From contig NZ_PDDM01000016.1 of assembly GCF_002914585.1 (NCBI RefSeq), positions 1 to 64,000 on the forward strand: a stretch of DNA of 64,000 nt. Direction: 5' to 3'. A program made the translations under genes and the position numbers. Every line of letters starts with the position of its first letter. The first letter of the stretch is position 1. The stretch is from Pseudanabaena sp. BC1403. Its GTDB lineage: Bacteria > Cyanobacteriota > Cyanobacteriia > Pseudanabaenales > Pseudanabaenaceae. Shown here one piece after another: positions 57,912 to 63,945 of the stretch. The notes beneath the pieces were generated by a model that was not told the DNA's origin, made no database searches, and saw only the letters and a list, made by a program, of their open reading frames with translations.

Positions 57912-58244
57912 TCAACTCAAGACTTATGGTAGCCAAGAACTCAAGTTCTTGGCTAAAAGCTAAAGTCCACTGAAGTGGACTAGGGAATATTTCTGGGCAG
58001 GTACTTCATCAACCCATTGAAACGGGTTTGAGCTTTTAGCCAGCACTTGAGTGCTGGGCTACTGATTATCACAGAGATGAATTAATTTACGTTAAAGTAA
58101 TCTAAAGCCAAGTAATTCCAAAACACAAAAAGACGTAGCTATTTTGTGTTTTTAGAACCTTTACGGGGTTTAGCTTTTAATTCACAGAAGTGCTGTCGCA
58201 CTTTTGTGAATTGGTATAAATCAACTGTTACACAGTGCAAATCT
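57912..58244. other. Interval with composite repeat and family B repeat
   Basis: No gene is seen. The first part (57931-58061) is a composite of stems: agccaagaac/gttcttggct, gtccac/gtggac, aacccattgaaacgggttt, and agcactt/gagtgct, with ctaaaagc and gcttttag as outer partners. A family B copy follows at 58112-58219. Such gcttttagcc blocks occur widely in cyanobacteria. Confidence 0.7.
58112..58219. repeat. Family B dispersed repeat, complete copy
   Basis: It runs from taattccaaaacacaaaaag to gaattggtataaa with the same three-stem order as 31357-31464. It ends 25 bases before the start of the Hen1-like gene, whose reading frame runs back through the repeat without a stop. Confidence 0.75.
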
Positions 58245-59648
58245 TTGCTCTTAACCATCACCACAACTCATCAACCTGCGACCGATCTCGGTTACTTACT
58301 GCATAAACATCCCGATCGCTGTCAGGCATTTGCGACCAACTTTGGACAAGCATCAGTATTTTATCCAGAGGCAAGTACTGAACAATGTACAGCCGCATTA
58401 TTACTGGATATTGATCCTGTTAGTCTGGTGCGTGGTAAATCAAAATCAAGTGGGGAAAGAACTTTAGAGCAGTATGTGAACGATCGCCCTTATGTTGCCT
58501 CATCATTTCTGAGCGTAGCGATCGCTGAGGTTTTTCGCACTGCACTTTCTGGTCATTGCCAGAATCTACCTGAATTGGTCAATACCGCCATTCCATTAAC
58601 CGTGAGTCTGCCCGTTTTGCCCTGTCGTGGTGGTGAATCCTTTTTGCGACAACTGTTTGAGCCATTGGGATATGAAGTTACGGCTCAAGCTTTAACCCTT
58701 GATGAGCAGTTTCCCGATTGGGGCAACAGCCCTTATTTCGCGGTTAGTTTACAAAATACGATTCGCTTGTCGGACTTGTTGAGTCATCTCTATGTGCTGA
58801 TGCCTGTTCTAGATGACGATAAGCACTATTGGGTAGGCGATGATGAAGTCGAAAAGTTATTGCGGCATGGAGAAGGTTGGCTGGGTAATCATCCTGAGCG
58901 GGAGCGGATTGCAAATCGCTATCTCCGCAAACAACGTCGCTTGACGCGCATGGCTTTGGAACAGTTAATTGCGGAAGATGAAGCCGATCTTGATAGCAAG
59001 GATATGATTCAGGCACAAGAAGAGGAAGCGATCGAGCAGAAAATTAGTCTCAATCAACAACGGATAGAAACAGTAGTAGCTAAGCTCAAACAACTTGGTG
59101 CAAAGCGGGTGGTGGATTTGGGTTGTGGTGAAGGGAAATTATTGCGATCGCTACTTAAAGAAAATTGCTTTGAGCAGATTACGGGAGTGGATGTATCCTA
59201 TCGTGCGCTCGAAATTGCAAAAGAGAGATTGAATCGAGATTATTTGTCAGCAAGGCAACAGGATAGCCTGCAATTGATACAGGGTTCGCTCACCTATCGC
59301 GATGATCGCTTAAATGGCTATGATGCAGCAACCTTAATTGAGGTAATTGAGCATCTCGATCTCAATCGTCTAGCGGCGATGGAACGGGTTGTGTTTGAGT
59401 TTGCGCGTCCCAAAAGCGTAATTATGACGACTCCCAACATTGAGTACAATATTCGCTTTGAAGGTTTGCCAAATGGAAAACTGCGTCACCGTGATCATCG
59501 TTTTGAATGGACGAGAGCGGAATTTCAAGATTGGGCGCAGGGAGTTGCGGTGCGATTTGGATATACTGTGGAGTTTGACGGTATTGGTTCTGATGATACT
59601 GAAGTCGGCTCTCCAACGCAAATGGCAGTATTTGCGATCGATTGTTAG
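58245..59648 (+). CDS. hen1: Bacterial Hen1 3'-terminal RNA ribose 2'-O-methyltransferase
   Basis: Bacterial Hen1 methylates the 2'-OH at the 3' end of cleaved RNA during repair, normally together with the kinase-phosphatase-ligase Pnkp. The N-terminal domain begins LLTITTTHQPATDLGYLLHKHP, as in the family. The C-terminal methyltransferase has VVDLGCGEGKLLRSL (SAM site) and the metal-binding EVIEHLDL with HRDHRFEW. The frame is open back to 58146, but that part lies in a repeat. The family's N-terminus suggests the TTG at 58245 as the start (467 residues), though no ribosome site is evident. No pnkp gene is adjacent. Confidence 0.88.
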   Translation: MLLTITTTHQPATDLGYLLHKHPDRCQAFATNFGQASVFYPEASTEQCTAALLLDIDPVSLVRGKSKSSGERTLEQYVNDRPYVASSFLSVAIAEVFRTALSGHCQNLPELVNTAIPLTVSLPVLPCRGGESFLRQLFEPLGYEVTAQALTLDEQFPDWGNSPYFAVSLQNTIRLSDLLSHLYVLMPVLDDDKHYWVGDDEVEKLLRHGEGWLGNHPERERIANRYLRKQRRLTRMALEQLIAEDEADLDSKDMIQAQEEEAIEQKISLNQQRIETVVAKLKQLGAKRVVDLGCGEGKLLRSLLKENCFEQITGVDVSYRALEIAKERLNRDYLSARQQDSLQLIQGSLTYRDDRLNGYDAATLIEVIEHLDLNRLAAMERVVFEFARPKSVIMTTPNIEYNIRFEGLPNGKLRHRDHRFEWTRAEFQDWAQGVAVRFGYTVEFDGIGSDDTEVGSPTQMAVFAIDC

Positions 59649-60206: not shown

Positions 60207-60338
60207 TTACTTTTGCTCAAATGTCAAAATCGAGCTAGCGATCGCAAGAAGATCTTCGCGAGAGTTAGGTATTTCAAAATGCTTCACATAGGCATTAAGA
60301 CTTTCTAACAGCGATCGCTCTACAGCACTATTAGTCAT
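60207..60338 (-). CDS. 43-residue ORF at the end of the lipoxygenase operon
   Basis: ATG 60338 has a textbook ribosome site (aaggag, 6 bases upstream) and opens 43 codons: MTNSAVERSLLESLNAYVKH, FEIPNSREDLLAIASSILTF, EQK. The protein looks like two amphipathic helices. It begins 59 bases after the lipase stop on the same strand. A longer frame exists (start 60401), but the ribosome site argues for the short form. Function unknown. Confidence 0.5.
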   Translation of the reverse strand: MTNSAVERSLLESLNAYVKHFEIPNSREDLLAIASSILTFEQK

Positions 60339-60397
60339 GAGACACTCCTTAATAAATTCGTTTGATAGCGTTTGATCGCCTATCTCAATAAACCACA

Positions 60398-62008
60398 TCA
60401 AGAATGTCCTTTATCATTTAGAAGTAGCTTGCGATGCAGAAATCGTCCTGCTATTATCCAAACTGTAGGCTTGACAATTACAAATGTCCATAACCTTCTT
60501 ATCAAGCGACGCACGCTGCCAAGAAGAACGCTTTTCTTTCTATCTTCTTCATCTAATTTATCATTAACAAGGTCGATTAATGCCATTAATCTTTCCCCAA
60601 TTGCTTTCTGTATTTTTTCTCGTTTGCTCAGATCAACTGCCTTTAGAAGATCATCTATAGAACCATTAGCATAGGCTTCGTGGGTTGCCCTATTAACTGG
60701 TAGAGTTATATCTTTTTCACCTTTCCCACCTTTTTTCGTAACAACTTCCCATTTTAAACAGAGTTGATCCTCTTCGCCAAGCTCTTTCCAGTAAGCTAAA
60801 TTGGGATTGGAAGTGTTTTTAGAAAATTTTTCAAGTGCTTCTCTTGCTGATTCTCTGCCAATATTGTAATCATAAAAACGGAATCGGATATCTAAGAAAC
60901 CAGCAAATGCAGATAGTAGCTCTCCAATTAACTTGTCATTTTTCGTTGTGATCTGAAAAATAGGACTTTTATTATCCAAGTCTTTAATAATCCAATCTTG
61001 AAATCTGGCTTGATTAAAAATCGCTGCAAGCAAAGCCTTTAGAGTTGTCCAAAGATCGATTTGCTCTGTTCTCCCAAAATTGATGTTTGAAGTAGAAGTT
61101 TTATTGCCTGGGGCAACATAGAGATAAAAGTGCTTGTTTGGTTCCTCGTGAGTCTTCTCGGTGATAGAAGACTCTTTATCATCAACCCATTCCGCTAACT
61201 TTTTAGCCAGTCCCAATGGTTCATTCTCAAAAACGCCTCCATCCGTATAACTATAAGTATTACTTTCACGTCCAGCAAATTCACCTTTTCCTGGACACCG
61301 AGTGATTTTTCTTACTTCAAATGCAAATGGAAATGCTCCAGATGACACACTACACTCTCGTAGTTTTTGCCAACTAGTTGGATGCATATCAACCCATTCA
61401 TCATCTTTCTTCCCGTCTTCACTCTTATGAGAAAGAGAAATTTCAAATAAGTTAATGCCATCAACTGAATGATCTAATCGACAAACAAATCGATCCTTAT
61501 ATCTTGTGTAAACAAATTCACTGTCCCCGTCTGTATTGTTTGGTTTTACAGTGTAATCCCAACCATTGAGATTAGACATTGCAATTCCCACAAAAATTTC
61601 TTTGGCAGCAGAAGGATGAGCCTCATGTAAAAGAGGAGAATCCTTTATATGGTTTCCTGCAATTCCTTCTACTGCTTTTGATGATAGTAGCGAAAATTTA
61701 TACTCTCGCTTATCTTTATCAAGTAGCTTTTCAATATCAACCTCATTAACCCACGCATGATATAAAGGATTGTCGTATGGCTTACGCAATTCTTTGCCAT
61801 CACAGAGTAACTTTTGTGCAAGAATACCTGCTGTCATCCCACCTGCTGAAGCGCCTGTAATCACATCAATTTCAATTCGAGATGAAGAATCTTTTGCAAG
61901 CTTCTCATTATGTTGAGCGATCGCCTCTAACACCTCATACATGACACCTGCTTCGTAGCTGCCCAATGAGACAGCACCACTGATTGCGATCGCTAATTTG
62001 CGTGACAT
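60398..62008 (-). CDS. Patatin-like phospholipase
   Basis: Patatins hydrolyse acyl esters of membrane lipids with a Ser-Asp dyad. The nucleophile elbow GASAGG gives S54, and the aspartate is D256 in YTDGGVFENEP. The oxyanion loop reads ISGAVSLGSYEAGV, a variant of the usual GGGxxG. The 536 residues exceed a minimal patatin (about 300); the C-terminal half contains extra helices and ends in a membrane-like segment (RRLWTFVIVKPTVWIIAGRF). It starts 83 bases after the lipoxygenase stop on the same strand. A role in freeing fatty acids for that enzyme is inferred. Confidence 0.85.
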   Translation of the reverse strand: MSRKLAIAISGAVSLGSYEAGVMYEVLEAIAQHNEKLAKDSSSRIEIDVITGASAGGMTAGILAQKLLCDGKELRKPYDNPLYHAWVNEVDIEKLLDKDKREYKFSLLSSKAVEGIAGNHIKDSPLLHEAHPSAAKEIFVGIAMSNLNGWDYTVKPNNTDGDSEFVYTRYKDRFVCRLDHSVDGINLFEISLSHKSEDGKKDDEWVDMHPTSWQKLRECSVSSGAFPFAFEVRKITRCPGKGEFAGRESNTYSYTDGGVFENEPLGLAKKLAEWVDDKESSITEKTHEEPNKHFYLYVAPGNKTSTSNINFGRTEQIDLWTTLKALLAAIFNQARFQDWIIKDLDNKSPIFQITTKNDKLIGELLSAFAGFLDIRFRFYDYNIGRESAREALEKFSKNTSNPNLAYWKELGEEDQLCLKWEVVTKKGGKGEKDITLPVNRATHEAYANGSIDDLLKAVDLSKREKIQKAIGERLMALIDLVNDKLDEEDRKKSVLLGSVRRLIRRLWTFVIVKPTVWIIAGRFLHRKLLLNDKGHS

Positions 62009-62091
62009 ATATTTTGACTCCGAATAGAATTATTATCTGGACGATTGACCAAATTACGAATGAATCTTCTTCTGTTAAATGGTCTCATGAT

Positions 62092-63945
62092 TCAAATGTT
62101 AATGCTCTGAGGAATCTTAGAAGGTATCAAAAATTTGTATGATTTTTCTGGATGAGTCAAGTTTCTTAGGATAATCTTAGATTCAATCTCTTCTAAGTTC
62201 TTTTGAAACTCTTGTAATGGCTTTTGCACTTGAGCGTCAATCAAATTTGTGTAATCTCCAAGTTTAGTGTAGTAAACTGATCCAAGCAAATAAGTTAGGT
62301 TCAGTTGCACTTGTGCCTGCTTAATCGGAGGCAGCAATTTGAAGTAATCTTGCTCGGAAATGTCATCAATTTTTTTGGGATCAGGAGTATATCCAGCCAT
62401 TGGCATCGCAGGTGCATAGCTCATCAATGGGGCTTGAGGATAATTTACGGCGGCATGTTGAGCACTGGCAGTAAAAATAATTTGAGTTGTAGCATCTACC
62501 AGATAAGATAAGGTTCTAATTTTACCATCTTGCCCAATCCCATTCAACTTCCCTCCATTAGAGGAAAGTAGTTCATTTAACCAATTTTGCAGCTCAGTAT
62601 CATTTAGTACATCGTCATCGCTCTTGTAGTAAATAGATAAGTAGTCCGATACCCATTGATGCAGAGCATCCCAAATCATTAGGGCATCATCTCTGTAGGG
62701 ATAGTCTGGCAACAAGTCGGGATCATTAACCCCTCGACGAACAAATGTATCGGGTAACATTGAATCATTAAAATTGAAACCTTGGATTGCCTTAGCCGAA
62801 AGTGCCTGAGATGACAGATATGTACCTGCTAGAACTTCATCTACAGGCTGATTTTTACCAGTTAAAAATTTTTGAGCTAGGTCATTAATTAGCAAAGTGC
62901 CTTCAAAGTGTGGGCGTAGCAAAATATTCAGAGGGTGGGCTGAGGCAAGTTGCCGATTAGTAGCGATCGCAAAAGGTTCAATTAGTAAATGTGTGAGACC
63001 TAAATGAGAAATCAGTTCATGGTGATTAGCATCAGCGATTTGGACAATTGTTTTAGCAATCAGCCAAGCCCATTTTGCCGAATCTGGATCATTTTGGGAT
63101 GGAGGTGAAATAACGGGAGTTTCTTCTGGATTTTGCCCACACTGAATAGCGATTGGTACCAAAGCACGAGATTCTGATGTAACTGGCGGTACGGCAAAAA
63201 GGGCTAGAGGAGCGCAGAGGTACTTCTGCTTCTCTGGGATCATTTCACTTGGATCTGGATCAACCTTTCCAGTTTCAACGTTAGCAAGAATGGCATAGTC
63301 AGCCAGATACAGTCGCCCTTCCTCTCCAGCTCTCTTTAAAGAGTCTCCTGGCATTACTAACTGGTAATGCGCCTCAGTTACTGGAAATCGTTGATCTAAG
63401 GCAGTGACTCTCTCTATCACTAGAGGATTAGATCCAGCAACACGCATCCGTGCAAATTCTGAATCTTCTTGGAATCGATTGCTAGTTTCGGGTAACCGAA
63501 TAGCCTGAAAAAGAGCCTCGTATTCGTCAAATCCATCTCCAGAACTATTAATACGTTCCGAAATCAACATCTTTAATGTTTCTTTAAGTGTCCGAGATTT
63601 CCCCATCCACCAAAATCCAAAAAGTCCCATAAGGTGAAACCCACCTGCTCCAAATTCATTAGACTTCAACCGCTTTCGCATCGTCAAATAGGTTTCAAAA
63701 TTATTTAAGGTATCCTTACCCTCCTTAAGGTTTTTGACTTGAATACTATTAAGTAGGAGTTTCAAGGCAGCCTCTGCTACTAAAGATAACCACCTAACAG
63801 AAGGGTAGTCCTCAAAAGAGAGCTTCTTTAGCATTGGCAATGGCGCAATATATTCATAGTCATATTGATATTGCCCTTGCTTCTTACTCAATTTATTCTG
63901 TCGTTTAGCTGGATTTGGATCGTTTTTTGGTAGAAAAGGTGACAT
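62092..63945 (-). CDS. Lipoxygenase
   Basis: Lipoxygenases add O2 to cis,cis-1,4-pentadiene fatty acids such as linoleate or linolenate, giving hydroperoxides (oxylipin precursors). All five non-heme iron ligands are visible by comparison with plant and animal enzymes: H314 and H319 (ISHLGLTHLLIEPFAIAT), H497 and N501 (ASAQHAAVNYPQ), and the C-terminal isoleucine I617. At 617 residues it lacks the N-terminal C2-like barrel of plant enzymes, as expected of bacterial forms. No signal peptide is seen. It starts at ATG 63945 near the window's edge. Positional and stereo specificity cannot be predicted from this alone. Confidence 0.93.
   Translation of the reverse strand: MSPFLPKNDPNPAKRQNKLSKKQGQYQYDYEYIAPLPMLKKLSFEDYPSVRWLSLVAEAALKLLLNSIQVKNLKEGKDTLNNFETYLTMRKRLKSNEFGAGGFHLMGLFGFWWMGKSRTLKETLKMLISERINSSGDGFDEYEALFQAIRLPETSNRFQEDSEFARMRVAGSNPLVIERVTALDQRFPVTEAHYQLVMPGDSLKRAGEEGRLYLADYAILANVETGKVDPDPSEMIPEKQKYLCAPLALFAVPPVTSESRALVPIAIQCGQNPEETPVISPPSQNDPDSAKWAWLIAKTIVQIADANHHELISHLGLTHLLIEPFAIATNRQLASAHPLNILLRPHFEGTLLINDLAQKFLTGKNQPVDEVLAGTYLSSQALSAKAIQGFNFNDSMLPDTFVRRGVNDPDLLPDYPYRDDALMIWDALHQWVSDYLSIYYKSDDDVLNDTELQNWLNELLSSNGGKLNGIGQDGKIRTLSYLVDATTQIIFTASAQHAAVNYPQAPLMSYAPAMPMAGYTPDPKKIDDISEQDYFKLLPPIKQAQVQLNLTYLLGSVYYTKLGDYTNLIDAQVQKPLQEFQKNLEEIESKIILRNLTHPEKSYKFLIPSKIPQSINI

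What the first reader, a model, noticed from the sequence alone, without database searches (positions are those of the whole stretch)
60207..63945. Lipoxygenase, patatin-like lipase and a 43-residue ORF in one operon: a candidate oxylipin module
Seen: a lipoxygenase with all five iron ligands (H314, H319, H497, N501, I617) is followed 83 bases later, on the same strand, by a patatin-like lipase (S54, D256), then by a tiny ORF with a perfect ribosome site. Established: lipoxygenases need free polyunsaturated fatty acids, and patatins release them. Inference: the pair forms a self-contained path from membrane lipid to fatty-acid hydroperoxide, perhaps for signalling or defence. Bacterial lipoxygenases are uncommon, and the co-encoded lipase and microprotein would supply the substrate and possibly regulation.
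Basis: partly seen in the sequence, partly recalled or inferred. Interest (0 to 1): 0.8.

Follow-up and report, generated by a model that had tools for sequence, protein, structure and literature searches.

The report
Lipid-splitting and lipid-oxidising gene pair
A cyanobacterium carries a gene for a fat-releasing enzyme right after a gene for a fat-oxidising enzyme, which may well work together but were found side by side only here, and the tiny third gene is the broken stump of a larger gene.

Summary
In detail: a lipoxygenase with all five iron ligands, a patatin-like lipase with its Ser-Asp dyad 83 bp downstream, and a 43-codon ORF with a good ribosome site. (1) The patatin-to-lipoxygenase path is biochemically sound, and lipoxygenases also stand near other lipases in some cyanobacteria, but too rarely in my sample to prove coupling. 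(2) This exact pair was found only here: 1 of 26 genomes of the genus and 1 of 388 of the class, although the class sample has lipoxygenases in 114 and this patatin in 14. (3) The '43-residue microprotein' is a truncated copy of a larger gene found in 19 of 26 genomes of the genus; its ribosome site is inherited. (4) The place is changeable. G019 has peptidoglycan-binding proteins and a hydrolase between the same flanks, two other relatives have nothing there, and most relatives' stretches do not show this arrangement at all. Four of 15 loci of this patatin family have a peptidoglycan hydrolase just upstream. Best reading: recently assembled cargo in which the patatin frees polyunsaturated acids and the lipoxygenase peroxidises them, for signalling or for attack. 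New variant of a known kind.

The parts
62092..63945 (-). Lipoxygenase, 617 aa, iron ligands H314, H319, H497, N501, I617; Pfam finds no PLAT domain; no signal peptide seen by eye
   Evidence: nearest solved relatives are 4rpe and 4g32, E about 1e-118 (that they are the P. aeruginosa enzyme is recalled)
62009..62091 (-). 83 bp gap between lipoxygenase and patatin, with CGGAG upstream of the patatin ATG
60398..62008 (-). Patatin-like lipase, 536 aa, GxSxG S54, DGG D256, long C-terminal helix with hydrophobic and basic residues
   Evidence: (patatin 4pka Z 20.5, rmsd 4.4, 299 residues aligned)
60207..60338 (-). 43-codon ORF: truncated N-terminal stump of a larger gene (about 270-300 aa in most members) found in 19 of 26 genomes of the genus; ribosome site and 5' flank inherited

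Best explanation
The patatin and the lipoxygenase form a two-step lipid path: the patatin deacylates membrane glycerolipids and the lipoxygenase turns the freed 18:2/18:3 acids into hydroperoxides. The pair, with the subtilase upstream, is a recent assembly at a changeable place in the chromosome. A patatin that also occurs, without lipoxygenase, in two other genomes of the genus stands here behind a lipoxygenase and a subtilase, and the neighbouring gene was cut down to the 43-codon stump. Shown: intact active-site residues, same-strand spacing, fold, no such pair in the relatives searched, different content between the same flanks in G019. Inferred: co-transcription, substrate, coupling, purpose, and the order of events.
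For: Ligands and Ser-Asp dyad. Both families over Pfam cut-offs. Patatin fold. Only patatin found in the genome. 14 desaturase-family matches at 12 places, one with a stop, consistent with polyunsaturated lipids. Lipoxygenase followed by a P450-like gene and a different, 1268-1375-aa patatin on one strand in G129 and G143; lipoxygenase-like genes fused or next to a class-3 lipase at 4 loci. G019 has the intact parent gene of the stump, DNA 91% identical over 4.5 kb of WD40 and GUN4 genes, and different content between. G020 has the Uma2/WD40 flank and patatin with 214- and 701-aa genes in place of subtilase and lipoxygenase. The lipoxygenase is outside the genus clade, and GC3 of subtilase (23.5) and patatin (27.7) is below that of the flanks tested (33.8 to 41.0).
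Against: The pair is found only here, so evolution offers no test of coupling for it. Patatin within 6 kb at 3 of 94 LOX loci against about 0.2 expected (hand sum) shrinks to one independent case, the genus of G129 and G143, once the window is set aside, and there another gene lies between. No background was worked out for class-3 lipases, and the partners there are divergent lipoxygenase-like proteins whose iron ligands I did not check. The patatin relative in G020 is frameshifted. LOX GC3 (33.2) is not atypical. The LOX tree place has SH-aLRT 90 and long branches.
Confidence: 0.45

Rival explanations
1. Envelope-attack arsenal. The place holds enzymes without export signals that break down cell envelopes (peptidoglycan hydrolases, lipases, subtilase) for delivery into or release onto other cells; patatin and lipoxygenase wreck membranes by deacylation and peroxidation.
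For: Between the same flanks G019 holds five PG_binding_1 proteins, four of them with GHL10, VanY, GH25 or M15 domains, and a hydrolase-like gene. Upstream neighbours of the patatin within 450 bp are Amidase_2+Glucosaminidase (L017), PG_binding+CHAP (L019, L021) and M15 (L020, itself behind an Amidase_2 gene): 4 of 15 loci of this patatin type. No signal peptide seen by eye in LOX, patatin, subtilase or the G019 proteins. A contractile-sheath gene is present in the genome, as in 19 of 26 of the genus.
Against: 11 of the 15 patatin loci have no such neighbour noted. No delivery gene was seen at the locus; the sheath gene is on another contig and common in the genus whatever the content. No strong defence-library match for the patatin. 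Proteins without export signals may simply act inside the cell.
Confidence: 0.25
2. Oxylipin signalling or wound-response module.
For: In other cyanobacteria lipoxygenases sit near P450s: one cluster at 19 of 94 LOX loci; the member compared with solved structures matches CYP152A1 (6e-7) and CYP74A2 (1e-6), its best hit being another P450 (1e-7). G129 and G143 have lipoxygenase, P450-like gene and patatin in a run.
Against: No P450 is seen beside this pair; the pair is not kept in relatives. The P450-like gene of G129 is under the Pfam cut-off (E 0.046) and that of G143 has no Pfam match.
Confidence: 0.15
3. Chance neighbours: two unrelated accessory genes brought together by gene turnover.
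For: The place is changeable and the pair occurs once.
Against: Same strand, 83 bp apart, functionally consecutive families, and some similar pairings elsewhere.
Confidence: 0.15

Closest known systems
Pseudomonas aeruginosa LoxA with the patatin-like phospholipase ExoU (PMC11011848, passages)
   Same: a phospholipase is proposed to release polyunsaturated acids that a bacterial lipoxygenase then oxidises; the window lipoxygenase is close to the solved 4rpe/4g32 enzymes
   Different: there the phospholipase is a secreted cytotoxin that frees host lipids, and LoxA is described as secreted (PMC6702342, start of abstract in the listing); that those genes are unlinked, and that ExoU is patatin-like, is recalled (ExoU structures do match my patatin model). 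Here the genes are adjacent and no signal peptide is seen by eye
Cyanobacterial mini-lipoxygenases (Nostoc 9R-LOX, PMC4574779; CspLOX2, PMC11719350; passages)
   Same: lipoxygenase of a cyanobacterium; the Nostoc enzyme cannot use the oil before a lipase has hydrolysed it; CspLOX2 has the catalytic domain only
   Different: no lipase gene partner is named in the passages read; product of the window enzyme unknown
LOX, P450-like gene and patatin of G129 and G143 (this work)
   Same: lipoxygenase and patatin on one strand in a short run
   Different: patatin of 1268-1375 aa, with DUF3376 in G129; another gene between
Calothrix sp. PCC 6303 plasmid pCAL6303.01
   Same: a distant relative of the window patatin (24% identity) right behind a GMC oxidoreductase, with a haem peroxidase gene further upstream
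   Different: no lipoxygenase in the stretch read; a transposase and other genes lie between peroxidase and GMC gene

Membership tests
Lipoxygenase (PF00305) | score over curated cut-off | tested here: met
   225.3 bits against 23.6
Lipoxygenase (PF00305) | three His, Asn and C-terminal Ile iron ligands | tested here: met
   H314, H319, H497, N501, I617; conserved in the alignment to 4rpe and 4g32
Lipoxygenase (PF00305) | dioxygenation of polyunsaturated fatty acids | not testable with these tools
   no activity data
Patatin-like phospholipase (PF01734) | GxSxG nucleophile and DGG/DGA aspartate | tested here: met
   S54 and D256; both invariant in the 15 rows aligned
Patatin-like phospholipase (PF01734) | patatin fold | tested here: met
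   model of mean pLDDT 69.8, weak around D256; 4pka Z 20.5, 299 residues aligned
Patatin-like phospholipase (PF01734) | glycine-rich oxyanion motif with basic residue (motif recalled) | tested here: inconclusive
   here SGAVSLGSYEAG, conserved in the 15 rows apart from one substitution but without the basic residue
TIGR03607 patatin-like protein | score over NCBIfam cut-off | tested here: not met
   52.7 bits against 262.45
CBASS phospholipase effector (NF041079) | score over NCBIfam cut-off | tested here: not met
   14.9 bits against 200; PADLOC effector E 0.0015
Conserved lipoxygenase-lipase-microprotein operon | adjacency kept in relatives | tested here: not met
   only the window genome among the 14 of 388 with this patatin; no lipoxygenase in the stretches held at 11 patatin loci of the species collection, one of them the contig of G020
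Conserved lipoxygenase-lipase-microprotein operon | 43-aa ORF is a gene of its own | tested here: not met
   21 of 26 genus matches lie in frames of 197 to 341 codons; DNA homology runs past the stop codon
Conserved lipoxygenase-lipase-microprotein operon | joint transcript | not testable with these tools
   spacing only

The most novel reading that the evidence does not exclude
A mobile or fast-changing gene group of this genus carries swappable sets of envelope-degrading enzymes without export signals, and an unnamed accessory family with a conserved N-terminal module sits directly downstream of unrelated lipases (patatin, DDHD-like, alpha/beta hydrolase) as partner, inhibitor or immunity protein. 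The window genome adds lipid peroxidation by a lipoxygenase to that arsenal, and the 43-codon stump is a leftover N-terminal module.
Probability: 0.15. Interest if true: 0.7.

Novelty: new variant of a known kind. Interest (0 to 1): 0.4.

Why it matters
If the two enzymes work in series, this is a compact, testable case of a bacterial lipase feeding a lipoxygenase from the adjacent gene. It also corrects a tempting mistake: a tiny ORF with a perfect ribosome site can be the stump of a larger gene. The neighbourhoods raise the question whether bacterial lipid peroxidation serves attack as well as signalling.

Tried and rejected
Rejected: the 43-aa ORF as a regulator made for the pair. Rejected: a catalogued defence system (the subtilase matches a PADLOC 'subtilase' model at 4e-21, which I read as a generic match). 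Rejected: conserved oxylipin operon in the genus.

Weak points found and handled: my first local patatin profile recognised only 8 of 14 Pfam patatins, one weakly, so I built a second from the other six, which found each of the six when left out in turn; its only further hit near a lipoxygenase was a 200-aa ORF on the other strand at E 0.0072, which I count as chance. My P450 and peroxidase profiles were seeded with members of the clusters they were used on, so I checked members by Pfam and solved structures: some P450-cluster members are clear (1.7e-16, 5.8e-18), others under the cut-off or without a match. My first class-3 lipase profile drifted into lipoxygenases and was replaced. In one search only two candidates per genome were scored and weak matches were cut from the list, so further lipoxygenases may exist; for the patatin genomes I therefore also checked the stretches around the patatin, which for G131 and G270 were short. 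The Coffa-site residue (A357) gives no safe stereochemistry; two papers opened for it do not mention the site. WD40/NB-ARC genes near 4 LOX loci were not pursued. Among plasmid loci, the lipoxygenase stretches of Rhodococcus, Pantoea, Nostoc and Acaryochloris list no patatin; one Acaryochloris plasmid has both genes about 35 kb apart, the patatin in pieces.

Against the slot reading: of 19 GUN4 stretches read from relatives, 3 have a member of the stump's parent family (G019, G022, G014) and 16 do not, some of them short. In G002 the WD40, Uma2, patatin and stump-like genes stand together but 1.6 Mb from its GUN4 gene. In G020 the patatin has no family member behind it.

Literature: the searches listed no paper whose title or abstract start is about a lipoxygenase-patatin gene pair in cyanobacteria; the library lacks most subscription journals, and most listed papers were not opened. 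Passages only were seen of PMC11719350, PMC11011848, PMC10177866 and PMC4574779.
Full report
What is there. The window lies on contig C16 of a 5.5 Mb genome. A genome of the same genus, G020, holds a contig that matches in length and gene content one named Pseudanabaena sp. (L022). On the minus strand stand a 617-aa lipoxygenase (62092-63945), a 536-aa patatin-like lipase (60398-62008) 83 bp further on, and a 43-codon ORF (60207-60338) 59 bp after that. The lipoxygenase scores 225 bits and the patatin 43 bits in Pfam, both over cut-off. The patatin model (mean pLDDT 69.8) matches plant patatin 4pka at Z 20.5, rmsd 4.4, 299 residues. Just beyond the window end, 435 bp upstream on the same strand, is a 450-aa subtilase, then a Uma2 gene and a WD40/NB-ARC gene on the other strand, then a GUN4 gene (Pfam 207 bits) and a 188-aa gene ('NB-ARC' is my reading of the sequence, Pfam's listed matches are WD40-type models).

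The tiny ORF. A search of 26 genomes of the genus with its 43 residues gave 26 matches in 19 genomes. Twenty-one lie in open frames of 197 to 341 codons; five are short (48 to 75), the window copy among them. In the best pair the window DNA matches from 55 bp upstream of the ATG to 23 bp past the stop codon (84% over 211 bp). So the ribosome site is inherited and the frame is cut. An intact homologue sits on contig C1 of the same genome. Place agrees in part: in G022 and G014 an intact member lies within 80 bp of GUN4, and in G019 an intact member (86% identical in the 43 residues) lies at the far side of the stretch that starts with GUN4 and WD40; in 16 of 19 GUN4 stretches read, some short, no member was found. 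A second short copy follows the patatin of G002.

The parent family. Of 22 sites read with flanks (L083 to L102, L103, and the second copy in L104), a hydrolase gene lies directly upstream at five: patatin in the window genome and G002, DDHD-like in G010 and G021 (Pfam E 0.0008 and 0.0022, under the cut-off), and an alpha/beta-hydrolase-like gene in G019 (0.003 to 0.01, under the cut-off). A hydrolase lies directly downstream at three (G004, G010, G019). The first 43 residues are more alike than the rest in 74 of 78 pairs of 13 members; five of the 18 loci given to that script (L084, L085, L086, L088, L101) were missed by its start motif and are not in that count. No expectation for these neighbour counts was worked out.

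The pair in relatives. Lipoxygenase genes are in 15 of 26 genomes of the genus and 114 of 388 sampled from the class; the window genome has two, about 50% identical. The window copy falls outside the genus clade, beside a gene of family f33 (SH-aLRT 90, long branches; the 48 best of 96 rows used). Matches to the patatin at 1e-5 are in 14 of 388 genomes, three of the genus among them and several short or weak. By place, only the window genome has both together; local profiles found no lipoxygenase in the stretches held around the patatin in the others, nor at the 11 patatin loci of the species collection (three of these contigs are under 12 kb).

Lipoxygenases and lipases elsewhere. I read neighbourhoods of 99 lipoxygenase ORFs of 300 aa or more at 94 loci, 90 from genomes and 4 from plasmids, none counted twice; 83 have 3 kb or more on both sides, 1.08 Mb of flank within 6 kb in all. 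Many weak or unlisted places were left out, and for most other genomes of the genus only about 1.5 kb each side was held, which showed no patatin beside the lipoxygenase outside the window's own gene. A patatin lies within 6 kb at three of the 94: the window and two genomes of one other genus, G129 and G143, where lipoxygenase, another gene and a 1375- or 1268-aa patatin follow each other on one strand. The gene between falls in a BLAST cluster with clear P450s, but Pfam gives E 0.046 for G129 and nothing for G143. From 14 patatins in 12 genomes of about 74 Mb, some chosen for having patatins, 0.2 would be expected (hand sum). Without the window, which was picked for its pair, one independent case is left, so this is suggestive only. 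Four loci have a lipoxygenase-like gene fused to or beside a class-3 lipase, one of them in the same genus (L196, L197, L198, L204). The cluster with P450s is present at 19 of 94 loci.

The place. Between the GUN4/WD40 side (DNA 91% identical over 4.5 kb) and the parent gene of the stump, G019 carries five proteins with PG_binding_1, four of them with GHL10, VanY, GH25 or M15 domains, and a 511-aa hydrolase-like gene; the window genome carries Uma2, subtilase, lipoxygenase and patatin; G022 and G014 carry neither WD40 nor cargo there. In G020 the Uma2/WD40 flank has 214- and 701-aa genes before a frameshifted patatin. In G002 WD40, transposase-like genes (by eye), patatin, a stump-like ORF and Uma2 stand together, but 1.6 Mb from GUN4. 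So the group, rather than one fixed site, seems to be what varies. Among 15 loci of this patatin type (L017-L021, L023-L025, L028, L063-L068; the short contigs L026, L027 and L069, the duplicate L022 and the more distant L070-L074 left out) four have a peptidoglycan hydrolase directly upstream (L017, L019, L020, L021). This is why the attack reading is my main rival. The genome has one contractile-sheath match, as do 19 of 26 genomes of the genus counting itself, on another contig, so no link is shown.

Mechanism. Most likely the patatin frees polyunsaturated acids from membrane lipids and the lipoxygenase peroxidises them. A Nostoc lipoxygenase is reported not to act on oil until a lipase has hydrolysed it (PMC4574779, passages), and in P. 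aeruginosa the phospholipase ExoU is proposed to supply LoxA (PMC11011848, passages). The genome has 14 desaturase-family matches. No step of the chemistry is shown here. Purpose is open.

Verdict. Observation confirmed; interpretation partly supported; a new variant of a known kind, moderately interesting.

Noticed in passing
L139, L144, L156, L159, L162, L165, L172, L173, L177, L181, L188: A family of about 180-226 aa (two members tested, no Pfam match) lies near lipoxygenase and P450-cluster genes at 11 of 94 LOX loci: a possible unknown step of a cyanobacterial oxylipin path.
   Followed up: partly
L196:9989-14077: A 1362-aa protein with class-3 lipase, jacalin, laminin-G-like and lipoxygenase domains in one chain, beside a second lipoxygenase-like gene.
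   Followed up: partly
L204:7922-10894: In a genome of the same genus (G003) a divergent lipoxygenase-like gene is next to a class-3 lipase.
   Followed up: partly
L161:6386-10534: An animal-type haem peroxidase homologue (Pfam 1e-112) 145 bp upstream of a lipoxygenase on the same strand.
   Followed up: partly
L154:1-6662: Calothrix PCC 6303 plasmid: a haem peroxidase gene, two small genes (one a transposase), a 303-aa gene, a GMC oxidoreductase and a patatin on one strand, the last two overlapping by 4 bp.
   Followed up: partly
window 58146-59648: Bacterial Hen1 RNA repair methyltransferase (747 bits), found in only 2 of 26 genomes of the genus.
   Followed up: partly
L071:4070-4411 and L071:9564-9683: In G109 (same family) a relative of the stump (113-aa frame) lies about 5 kb from a 40-codon patatin remnant with a stop, which is followed by a gene with a sub-cut-off DDHD match.
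   Followed up: partly
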